From contig JAIRSZ010000182.1 of the NCBI GenBank assembly GCA_031255195.1, positions 1 to 39,668 on the forward strand: DNA of 39,668 nt. The letters are read 5' to 3'. The stretch is from Prevotellaceae bacterium (GTDB lineage: Bacteria > Bacteroidota > Bacteroidia > Bacteroidales > UBA932). Both the position numbers and the translations under genes were made by a program. The stretch's first letter is position 1. The number at the start of each line of letters is the position of its first letter. The notes under the pieces were generated by a model, which was not told where the DNA came from, searched no databases, and worked only from the letters and a program-made list of their open reading frames with translations. This document shows, piece after piece, positions 34,489 to 37,757 of this stretch.

Positions 34489-34662
34489 GGGCTACCATAC
34501 GTTTTCCTGACTTTGATACTTGGGTGTCGCAAGGCGTTTTTTAACGTTGAGAATCGCCCATTCGCCATATTTTTTTATCTTGATTTCCAAATACTCAATT
34601 CTAATGAGGTTAAATTCATTTTGGGTGTCGCATTGTCAAAGTCAGGGGCTACCATACGTTTT
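34489..34662. repeat. Shuffled repeat modules A-B'-C ... C-B-A
   Basis: A = GGGCTACCATACGTTTT at 34489-34505 and 34646-34662; B' = CTGACTTTGA at 34507-34516 and its inverse TCAAAGTCAG at 34636-34645; C = TTGGGTGTCGCA at 34520-34531 and 34621-34632. Confidence 0.85.
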
Positions 34663-34763: not shown

Positions 34764-35363
34764 TCAATATCTTTTTTCTCTACTCTCAAACAGCTTAACT
34801 CCTGTGGCTTCCAGAAAACTCACGCTTAAAGATTGAAAAGCAGTATCTCTTTGCGGGTATGTATCGGGAGTTGCAACAAATGCCTCCAACTCCAATCCTG
34901 AGTAGTCTTTACTCAATATCTTGTCAAAATAGCGCAGCGTGCTTTTCAGCTGCTCAATGGCTTTTACTCTATTGTTTCTGATAGTTAAATCGTTAGTTGA
35001 AGTTGCGTTTAGCTTCAACTCAACCAAGCAGAAATTAGTATCATTGAAAAAAACAAAGTCACAGCAACGGCTTTTGAGCAAACCTCTGCCGTCTGTCGGG
35101 ATAAAACCGATTTCGCTCGAATTGTAGATTGTAAAAATTTTGTCCTTGCTAAATGTGACAAGTTCAGGTGTTTTTCCCCGACCTCTCCGAACTTCGATAG
35201 CGCCGGTTTTAGTGTTCCAATCAGCGTTTTTGAGTATGTAAGAAGTGCCGTTTGCACTGTATTCTGCAATGTAAATTTCGCTTGAGGAAAATTTTTCAAG
35301 AAAATCGGAGAGGTTATCTATTTTTGAATGAAGTACCTTTGTCAAAACATCGCTTTTTGTCAT
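34764..35363 (-). CDS. Small protein with PD-(D/E)XK nuclease-like core, partner of the upstream ATPase
   Basis: D102-x12-E115-x-K117 in SRCCDFVFFNDTNFCLVELKLNA, then helix with Q138 (KAIEQLKSTLRYF); ATGA overlap with the ATPase gene. Confidence 0.6.
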   Translation of the reverse strand: MTKSDVLTKVLHSKIDNLSDFLEKFSSSEIYIAEYSANGTSYILKNADWNTKTGAIEVRRGRGKTPELVTFSKDKIFTIYNSSEIGFIPTDGRGLLKSRCCDFVFFNDTNFCLVELKLNATSTNDLTIRNNRVKAIEQLKSTLRYFDKILSKDYSGLELEAFVATPDTYPQRDTAFQSLSVSFLEATGVKLFESREKRY

Positions 35364-36565
35364 CTTCTAAAACTTTTGGCGTGAAGATTATACAATGCAT
35401 TAAACTCATTACCCAGAATTTCAGAAGCCGTATCCAGATAATTTTGCGCTATCATTCCTGTTGTTTCATCAACTATTGATTTGACAATGTGTCCATTGCT
35501 ACCATCTTTTGTTACAGCGTAAGCCGAAAAGTCATCGGATTTCAGGCGTATTTCTTTCCCTGCTATTTGGGAGGCTTCTGCTTCTATTTCACCGTTCTTT
35601 TCTACCGCTCTCTGTGCAAAGAGCAGGTTGTTAAAAATGGTCAGCACGTAAGGGCTGTGCGTGGAAATTACCAGCTTGTTGTGATCGTTACTGTTGCAAA
35701 TTTGAATCAAACTTTTTACCACTTGTACCTGCGATACAGGGAACAGATTCTGCTCCGGCTCTTCAACAATATTGATAAATGCTTTTTTGTTGAATTTACC
35801 CGAAAGCGCAGAAATTGCTATTTGCTTTTGTTTCTCCGACAGGTTTTCGTTGTTTAATATCTCATTTATCTCTTTCTGAAATTTCCTGATGCTGCCGCTT
35901 GTCATTGCTTCGCTGTGGCCGTTGTTTTGCACTATTTTTGACAAATAGTCCGACACTATGTATAATGGCGCAGACGATTGCAACCCGCTCGCAGCTTCCG
36001 TGATTTTAATCTTATGGTCTTTATCTCTTACGTATAGCATCTCGTGCCTTTTGCTATACTCTATTTCAAACCCTCCTATTGGCAAAGTTAACGCTCCATT
36101 TAAGCTACTTGATGCATTAAAAAGTTCTCTTTCAAAATCTTGCAACGCTCCTTCTGATTTTAGATCATTGGTACTTCTCAAGTATGTGAGAAAGTTTCTT
36201 TCGGCAGGAACATACATTATTTGCGGTAGCTGGTAGGTGTGTTTTTTCTTTGGCTCAATGGAGATTTTCTCGTTGTTGTACCTGATGTTGTATGCAACGC
36301 CATAGTACTCTATGTCAGATGTGGAATTAAGATAATTTTCTATCCTGTGGTACGGCAGGAAAAATGTTTTTAACCGGTTCTGCTTCTCGAACCATTTTTC
36401 TTCGGAGCCGCGAAACAACGCTTTTTCAATCCATAGAAATGTGGAAATCAACTTTATAATTGTACTTTTTCCGGTAGCATTATCGCCAATTAAGGCAACA
36501 ACTTTTTTTATTTCTATTTCGGCGTTTGAGATGGGGCCAAAATTTTTAATCGCTATTTTCTGCAT
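35360..36565 (-). CDS. AAA15/OLD-like (ABC-type) ATPase
   Basis: Start MQKIAIKNFGPIS; Walker A GDNATGKST; SGLQS signature-like; Walker B FINIVEEPEQNLFP; ISTHSPYVL switch His. Confidence 0.85.
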   Translation of the reverse strand: MQKIAIKNFGPISNAEIEIKKVVALIGDNATGKSTIIKLISTFLWIEKALFRGSEEKWFEKQNRLKTFFLPYHRIENYLNSTSDIEYYGVAYNIRYNNEKISIEPKKKHTYQLPQIMYVPAERNFLTYLRSTNDLKSEGALQDFERELFNASSSLNGALTLPIGGFEIEYSKRHEMLYVRDKDHKIKITEAASGLQSSAPLYIVSDYLSKIVQNNGHSEAMTSGSIRKFQKEINEILNNENLSEKQKQIAISALSGKFNKKAFINIVEEPEQNLFPVSQVQVVKSLIQICNSNDHNKLVISTHSPYVLTIFNNLLFAQRAVEKNGEIEAEASQIAGKEIRLKSDDFSAYAVTKDGSNGHIVKSIVDETTGMIAQNYLDTASEILGNEFNALYNLHAKSFRR

Positions 36566-36585
36566 AATTAGCCGCATTATTTTTG

Positions 36586-36593
36586 CAAAGTTA
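36586..36593 (-). promoter_or_regulatory. -7 element for the ATPase/nuclease-like operon
   Basis: Minus strand TAACTTTG about 20 nt upstream of MQKIAIKNFG; upstream -33 element weak. Confidence 0.45.
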
Positions 36594-36776: not shown

Positions 36777-36860
36777 CCCTCCAAAAATATGCGCCTCCGG
36801 TGCGGGAGCGTCGGAAGGTAGCAATAAGCTATGTTTAATCCTACTTATAGTAAAAAAATT

Positions 36861-37757
36861 ATGCCGGAAGTAAAAAAGGAAACGGGAACATTTGCCGTTA
36901 AGAAAGGCCTCGCAGAGATGCTCAAGGGCGGGGTAATTATGGACGTTGTCAACCCGGAGCAGGCAAAAATTGCGGAGGAGGCGGGCGCGGTTGCCGTAAT
37001 GGCGCTGGAACGCGTACCCTCGGATATTCGGGCGCAGGGCGGCGTGGCGCGCATGTCCGACCCGGAGATGATTGGCGGTATTCAGCAGGCCGTTTCTATT
37101 CCCGTGATGGCAAAGGCGCGCATTGGCCACATCGTGGAGGCGCGCGTGCTGGAGGCGCTGGATATTGACTTCATCGACGAAAGCGAGGTGCTAACGCCTG
37201 CCGACGATGTGTACCACATCCTGAAGTCGGAGTTTAAAGCGCCGTTTGTTTGCGGCGCCCGCAACCTCGGCGAGGCGCTCCGTCGCGTGGGCGAGGGGGC
37301 GGCGATGATACGCACCAAGGGCGAAGCCGGTACGGGCGACGTGGTAGAGGCCGTGCGGCACATTCGCCAGGTGAACAGCGACATACAGCGCGTTGTGAGC
37401 GCATCGCCCATGGAGCTGATGACCATTGCCAAGGAAATGGGCGCTCCCTACGAGCTGGTGCTACAGGTCAAGGAGTTGGGGCGGCTGCCGGTGGTGAACT
37501 TCGCCGCCGGTGGAATAGCAACGCCCGCCGACGCCGCCCTGATGATGGTGTTGGGGTGCGACGGCGTATTCGTGGGGTCGGGCATCTTCAAGTCGGACAA
37601 TCCGGCCAAGCGCGCCAAGGCCATTGTGGAGGCGGTGGCTCACTACCAGGACGCCAAGCTGGTGGCCGAAGTATCCAAAGGGTTGGGCGAGGCCATGCGA
37701 GGTCAAAGCGTAGCCCAAATGGAGGATAAGGAAAAAATTGCAGGACGCGGCTGGTAG
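36861..37757 (+). CDS. pdxS: Pyridoxal 5'-phosphate synthase lyase subunit PdxS
   Basis: [55 protein letters not shown]; start may be 36831 or 36861. Confidence 0.97.

What the first reader, a model, noticed from the sequence alone, without database searches (positions are those of the whole stretch)
34764..36593. Two-gene ATPase + PD-(D/E)XK-like operon: candidate undescribed defence/toxin system
Seen: an AT-rich block between pdxS and the hemerythrin/LuxR genes. An ABC-type ATPase (GDNATGKST, VEEPEQNLFP, STHSPYVL) shares an ATGA stop/start overlap (35360-35363) with a 199-aa protein carrying D102-x12-E115-L-K117 plus a following Gln-containing helix, the layout of PD-(D/E)XK nucleases. Established: AAA15/OLD-type ATPases paired with a nuclease effector occur in PARIS (TOPRIM/DUF4435 AriB), Septu (HNH PtuB) and Gabija. 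Inference: here the effector looks like a PD-(D/E)XK enzyme, a different pairing, with the ATPase perhaps gating the nuclease.
Basis: partly seen in the sequence, partly recalled or inferred. Interest (0 to 1): 0.8.

Follow-up and report, generated by a model that had tools for sequence, protein, structure and literature searches.

The report
Mosaic ATPase–nuclease phage-defence operon
This is a two-gene, probably anti-phage, operon of an ATPase sensor and a small nuclease; the kind is already catalogued as a defence candidate and resembles the tested WonAB system, but this copy is a mosaic in which the ATPase's tail and the nuclease appear to have been swapped together onto a different ATPase body, pointing to a plug-in effector module.

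Summary
An AT-rich two-gene operon encodes a 401-aa AAA15/OLD-type ATPase (A) overlapping by ATGA a 199-aa protein (B). AlphaFold (pLDDT 88) and 102 deduplicated homologous pairs support a PD-(D/E)XK fold for B: E115 and K117 in 101/102, D102 as D/E in 100/102, Q138 in 95/102. A and B are tightly linked across several phyla: every B ORF extracted with a B profile has A beside it, and about 71-72 of 80 A loci have B next door.

The "undescribed" part fails. A matches PADLOC candidate PDC-M29A (5e-117) and B weakly matches its partner PDC-M29B (1e-4). A functionally tested system of the same layout, WonAB, was published in 2025.

What is new is the anatomy. The window ATPase is a mosaic: residues 1-285 are 70% identical to L078, but its C-terminal tail and B belong with L036/L037, whose ATPase bodies are AriA-like. 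A second swap (L029/L118/L035) shows the same pattern, and across 102 pairs the tail tracks B far better than the body does. The tail is therefore the likely docking module, and tail+B behaves as an exchangeable effector cassette. Homologue neighbourhoods are rich in defence genes. Defence activity and substrate are untested here.

The parts
35360..36565 (-). Gene A: 401-aa AAA15/OLD-type ABC ATPase, PDC-M29A-type body
   Evidence: Pfam AAA_15 1.5e-17; PADLOC PDC-M29A 5.1e-117; AF2 pLDDT 89.3; best PDB folds PtuA/Septu, retron PtuA, GajA
36467..36469 (-). Walker A Lys33 codon of A
   Evidence: K33 in 100 of 102 homologues
35759..35764 (-). Walker B E268/E269 codons of A (VEEPE)
   Evidence: 102 of 102
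35657..35659 (-). H-loop His303 codon of A (STHSPY)
   Evidence: 102 of 102
34764..35650 (-). Inferred exchangeable effector cassette: C-terminal tail of A (residues 306-401) plus gene B
   Evidence: Tail+B group with L036/L037 while the body groups with L078; AU tests
34764..35363 (-). Gene B: 199-aa PD-(D/E)XK nuclease-like effector, diverged PDC-M29B
   Evidence: PDC-M29B 1.1e-4; AF2 pLDDT 87.9, pTM 0.86; PDB hits led by PD-(D/E)XK enzymes
35058..35060 (-). D102 codon of B, first catalytic acid
   Evidence: D in 89, E in 11 of 102
35013..35021 (-). E115-L-K117 codons of B, (D/E)XK motif
   Evidence: E 101/102, K 101/102
34950..34952 (-). Q138 codon of B, in the helix after the catalytic hairpin
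   Evidence: Q in 95 of 102; helix 125-150
35360..35363 (-). ATGA stop/start overlap of A and B
   Evidence: the same 4-base overlap recurs in many homologous pairs

Best explanation
A two-component anti-phage system of the PDC-M29/WonAB kind. The ATPase A probably dimerises through its ATP sites, with the body (including the insert between Walker A and Walker B) sensing infection. The C-terminal tail (about residues 306-401) docks nuclease B, a PD-(D/E)XK enzyme. On sensing, ATP-dependent rearrangement of A activates B, which cuts nucleic acid (by analogy with WonB, possibly tRNA or rRNA) and stops growth, aborting infection. Tail+B move as one cassette between different ATPase bodies, letting one effector be wired to different sensors. 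Shown here: conserved operon, predicted fold and catalytic residues, defence neighbourhood, tail-B co-inheritance, mosaic origin. Inferred: dimerisation, docking, sensing, activation, substrate, abortive outcome.
For: PDC-M29A 5e-117 and weak PDC-M29B hits. PD-(D/E)XK topology with E115/K117/Q138 in place; the top PDB matches BsoBI, EcoT38I, Nt.BspD6I, Hjc and Hef are of that superfamily. 29 of 29 B ORFs recovered with a B profile have A immediately upstream; about 71-72 of 80 A loci have B beside or just downstream. Neighbours of the homologues hit 113 PADLOC families at 1e-20 (type I RM, CBASS NucC/HORMA/TRIP13, Septu, Lamassu, AbiLi, type IV REase; by my reading at least 12 of 111 proteins) against 1 family and 1 of 97 proteins in control stretches. 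Tail-B partial rank correlation 0.58 against a permutation maximum of 0.18, persisting at 0.50 without the window's clade; two tail+B swaps with AU support; 0 of 469 close-B pairs have a distant tail. Literature: WonB needs WonA and its ATPase activity for toxicity, is predicted to dock on the dimerised C-terminal extensions of WonA, and shuts down translation without DNA loss (PMC12137116).
Against: No phage challenge of PDC-M29 was found in anything read here. WonA/WonB sequences were not compared directly. PDB matches for B are weak (best E 4.7e-3, TM scores below 0.4). B's PADLOC hit is only 20 bits. The window copy itself lies between pdxS and a LuxR gene, not in a visible defence island. 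The clades for the AU tests were chosen after seeing the identities.
Confidence: 0.72

Rival explanations
1. B cuts phage or plasmid DNA directly (restriction-like, as in Gabija or Septu), with A as a DNA-bound, ATP-regulated sensor.
For: A's best fold matches are PtuA of Septu and retrons and GajA; B's best fold matches are DNA restriction and structure-specific nucleases.
Against: WonB, the nearest tested analogue, leaves chromosomal DNA intact and stops translation (PMC12137116); fold similarity does not fix the substrate.
Confidence: 0.3
2. A toxin-antitoxin pair: B is the toxin, A merely sequesters it.
For: Strict linkage, overlapping genes, small nuclease partner, low-GC acquired block.
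Against: A's ATPase residues are nearly invariant; in the analogous WonAB, WonB is non-toxic without WonA, which excludes simple sequestration there.
Confidence: 0.1
3. A cellular repair or housekeeping pair (RecF/SMC-like ATPase with a repair nuclease), not defence.
For: The ATPase superfamily includes RecF and SMC; Hjc and XPF are among B's fold matches.
Against: Patchy distribution (19 of 396 phylum genomes at 1e-60), defence-rich neighbourhoods, occurrence on plasmids and in viral contigs, module swapping.
Confidence: 0.05

Closest known systems
PADLOC candidate system PDC-M29 (PDC-M29A + PDC-M29B)
   Same: Same gene order, ATPase family (389.6 bits) and small partner with the same C-D/E...ELK...Q pattern
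   Different: Window B is far from the model (20.3 bits) and its ATPase tail is of another lineage; I found no experimental test of PDC-M29 in the papers searched
WonAB (V. cholerae WASA-1 prophage; PMC12137116)
   Same: ABC ATPase related to OLD-type ATPases plus small PD-(D/E)xK nuclease; nuclease predicted to dock on the ATPase C-terminal extension. Viral-contig pairs recognised by my profiles have B proteins of WonB's size (L168: 16.1 kDa, ELK lysine at 71)
   Different: WonB is about 140 aa (16.1 kDa), window B 199 aa; WonA and WonB sequences were not compared
PARIS (AriA/AriB)
   Same: AAA15-type ATPase sensor with separate nuclease effector; ATPases of L036 and L046, which carry tail+B of the window's type or near it, score best to AriA
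   Different: AriB is a TOPRIM/DUF4435 nuclease; B is PD-(D/E)XK-like and does not hit AriB
PD-T4-4
   Same: ATPase plus nuclease operon listed as related to WonAB; window A hits PD-T4-4_A at 1e-16
   Different: Window B has no hit to PD-T4-4_B
Septu (PtuAB) and retron PtuAB effectors
   Same: Best solved folds for A
   Different: PtuB is an HNH nuclease; B is not

Membership tests
PDC-M29 (PADLOC candidate) | ATPase matching PDC-M29A | tested here: met
   5.1e-117, residues 1-394
PDC-M29 (PADLOC candidate) | Adjacent partner matching PDC-M29B | tested here: inconclusive
   1.1e-4, 20.3 bits; its nearest relatives L036, L037, L046 hit at 3e-9, 4e-8 and 2e-17; PADLOC's own cut-offs were not available
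PDC-M29 (PADLOC candidate) | Demonstrated phage defence | not testable with these tools
   No paper found naming PDC-M29
PD-(D/E)XK superfamily | Alpha-beta core with D...(D/E)XK on a hairpin, then helix and strand | tested here: met
   AF2 order E103-106, E110-116, H125-150, E158-164, H174-187, E190-193; residue conservation; top PDB hits, though weak
PD-(D/E)XK superfamily | Metal-dependent nuclease activity | not testable with these tools
   No assay
WonAB | ABC ATPase with C-terminal extension plus small PD-(D/E)xK nuclease in one operon | tested here: met
   layout as described in PMC12137116
WonAB | Sequence homology to WonA/WonB | not tested
   WonAB sequences were not fetched; only size and residue positions compared
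PARIS | AriB TOPRIM/DUF4435 effector | tested here: not met
   B has no Pfam or AriB hit and a different fold
Septu | PtuB HNH nuclease partner | tested here: not met
   No PtuB hit for B; PD-(D/E)XK-like fold
Gabija | ATPase fused to TOPRIM plus UvrD-like GajB | tested here: not met
   A is 401 aa with no C-terminal TOPRIM hit; B is not a helicase

The most novel reading that the evidence does not exclude
The ATPase tail plus nuclease gene is a portable effector cassette that recombines at the conserved H-loop region onto different OLD/AAA15 sensor bodies (PDC-M29A-type and AriA-like), so sensor specificity and effector output of this defence superfamily evolve as separable plug-ins, and functional chimeras can be predicted.
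Probability: 0.6. Interest if true: 0.65.

Novelty: new variant of a known kind. Interest (0 to 1): 0.5.

Why it matters
ABC-ATPase/nuclease pairs are a large and mostly untested class of bacterial immunity, and how the ATPase controls the nuclease is open. Natural mosaics that carry the tail and nuclease together onto foreign ATPase bodies point to the interface and make it testable by tail swaps in laboratory strains. They also warn that naming such systems from the ATPase body alone can mislead about the effector.

Tried and rejected
Direct search of the species-genome collection with B alone gave nothing, as did plasmids with B: B diverges too fast, so profiles and the ATPase were used. 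Rejected: PARIS, Septu, Gabija membership (effector mismatch). The A-proximal ORF in L157 looks acetyltransferase-like by eye, not B. L107's 871-aa 'fusion' is B running in frame into what looks like glyS, not an effector fusion. An empty-site comparison failed: the five same-family genomes have no pdxS match.

Full report
Observation. The block is 38-42% GC between flanks of 51-63%, which suggests acquisition from elsewhere.

What A is. Pfam AAA_15 (1.5e-17). PADLOC PDC-M29A over residues 1-394 at 5e-117, far ahead of AriA (5e-20), PD-T4-4_A (1e-16) and PtuA (5e-14). AlphaFold2 on a 33-row alignment gives pLDDT 89, and the best solved folds are PtuA of Septu and of retrons, then GajA. G27, G32, K33, E268, E269, E271 and H303 are nearly or fully invariant.

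What B is. No Pfam family, a weak PDC-M29B match (1.1e-4). AlphaFold2 on 35 homologues gives pLDDT 87.9 and pTM 0.86, with the order strand 103-106, strand 110-116, helix 125-150, strand 158-164, helix 174-187, strand 190-193: the PD-(D/E)XK core. The best PDB matches are BsoBI, EcoT38I, Nt.BspD6I, Hjc and Hef/XPF, all of that superfamily by general knowledge, although none reaches 1e-3 and TM-scores are below 0.4. In 102 deduplicated pairs E115 and K117 are kept in 101, D102 is D in 89 and E in 11, D91 in 100, C101 in 99, Q138 in 95, T142 in 92.

Linkage and spread. A at 1e-60 occurs in 19 of 396 genomes of the phylum, and a search with the window protein at 1e-25 found it in 23 of 295 genomes of the order. 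Named loci include Bacteroidota, Chlorobiaceae, Pseudomonas, Zoogloea, Alysiella, Desulfobacterales, Spirochaetaceae, Fibrobacterales and Cyanobacteria. A B profile finds B in 31 of 396 genomes; all 29 B ORFs then extracted have A immediately upstream. Of 80 A loci, about 71-72 have B adjacent or just downstream in fragmented or complete form; the rest are broken or have something else. The pair is thus a genuine unit.

Defence context. Up to five neighbouring ORFs each from 23 homologous loci (111 proteins in all) matched 113 PADLOC families at 1e-20, among them type I restriction-modification, CBASS (NucC, HORMA, TRIP13), Septu, Lamassu LmuB, AbiLi and type IV restriction. Counting only functions that cannot be one protein, I read this as at least 12 of 111. 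97 ORFs from control stretches of genomes of the same phylum matched one family, in one protein. The control is not organism-matched, so the size of the enrichment is rough.

The mosaic. Against L078 (soil Bacteroidetes MAG) the window ATPase is 70% identical over residues 1-285 but 31% in the tail, and B is 20% identical. Against L036 and L037 the body is 28% and 26%, the tail 54% and 52%, B 46-47%. Sliding identity puts the change-over near residues 285-305, at the conserved H-loop. L036 and L046 have ATPases that score best to AriA. Trees of body and of tail+B disagree. AU tests reject {W, L036, L037} on the body (p 9e-8), {W, L078} on tail+B (6e-57) and {W, L078, L111} on tail+B (5e-4), where W is the window. 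An independent case: L029 and L118 share a body (71%) but not tail (23%) or B (14%), while L029 shares tail and B with L035 (51%, 38%); AU p 5e-47 and 1e-3. The clades were named after seeing identities, so the p values are descriptive, but they are extreme.

The tail rule. Over 102 pairs, distance of the tail (309-401) predicts distance of B after removing the body (partial rank correlation 0.58; 300 permutations, maximum 0.18; 0.50 without the window's clade), whereas the body given the tail gives 0.27. In 469 pairs with B above 45% identity, none has a tail below 30%; the reverse does occur (29 pairs with close tails but distant B). These pairs are not independent of each other. B thus does not appear to move without its tail. 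The simplest reading is that the tail is B's docking and coupling surface.

Known systems. WonAB (PMC12137116) is an ABC ATPase plus a PD-(D/E)xK nuclease. Both activities are needed for defence, WonB is predicted to bind the dimerised C-terminal extensions of WonA, toxicity of WonB needs WonA, and activation stops translation with intact DNA. That paper also points to PD-T4-4 and an 'OLD-ABC ATPase + novel REase' operon and to variation in C-terminal extensions. In viral contigs my profiles find ATPase pairs with B of 139-145 aa; L168's B is 16.1 kDa with its ELK lysine at 71, the same as the values printed for WonB. This is suggestive, not a homology test. L078's B is of the same short type by eye.

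Mechanism, in order of support. Shown: conserved operon, predicted fold and catalytic residues, defence neighbourhood, co-inheritance of tail and B. Inferred from relatives: ATP-dependent activation of B by A, and abortive infection. Open: trigger, substrate. I put about 0.7 on a WonAB-like nuclease-effector system, and 0.3 on DNA rather than RNA as main substrate (the two readings overlap).

Novelty. The kind is known; the member is new and chimeric. The cassette behaviour was not described in the papers I could read, but the Payne et al. preprint and the Krishnan et al. survey were not held, so priority is not established.

Noticed in passing
L192 (Microcystis phage Mic1, MN013189.1, 16586-17824): A phage carries a lone PDC-M29A-like ATPase (35.7% over residues 1-355) with no B beside it and none found elsewhere in the phage by the B profile. 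Its tail resembles the common tail type by eye, so a decoy or counter-defence role is possible.
   Followed up: partly
window 34489-34505 and 34646-34662: A 17-base repeat GGGCTACCATACGTTTT occurs twice just downstream of the operon, with three near copies on other contigs of the genome and none for the reversed control.
   Followed up: partly
L161, L163, L164, L166, L168, L170, L175 (viral contigs): Virus- or prophage-borne ATPase plus about 139-163-aa B pairs with a DGC...CD...ELKG pattern, several WonB-sized.
   Followed up: partly
L093 11249-13193: In a gammaproteobacterial MAG the M29A-like ATPase is followed not by B but by a second AAA-type ATPase (427 aa) and a 218-aa protein.
   Followed up: no
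L044, L045: Distant ATPase relatives with adjoining 173-175-aa partners that lack the ELK motif: another effector on a related ATPase.
   Followed up: no
L107 11271-13886 (Alysiella crassa): B runs in frame into what looks like glyS, giving an 871-aa ORF; a lost stop or an assembly error.
   Followed up: no
window 36831-37757: pdxS, next to the operon, had no match at 1e-60 in five genomes of the same family, so this neighbourhood is variable.
   Followed up: no
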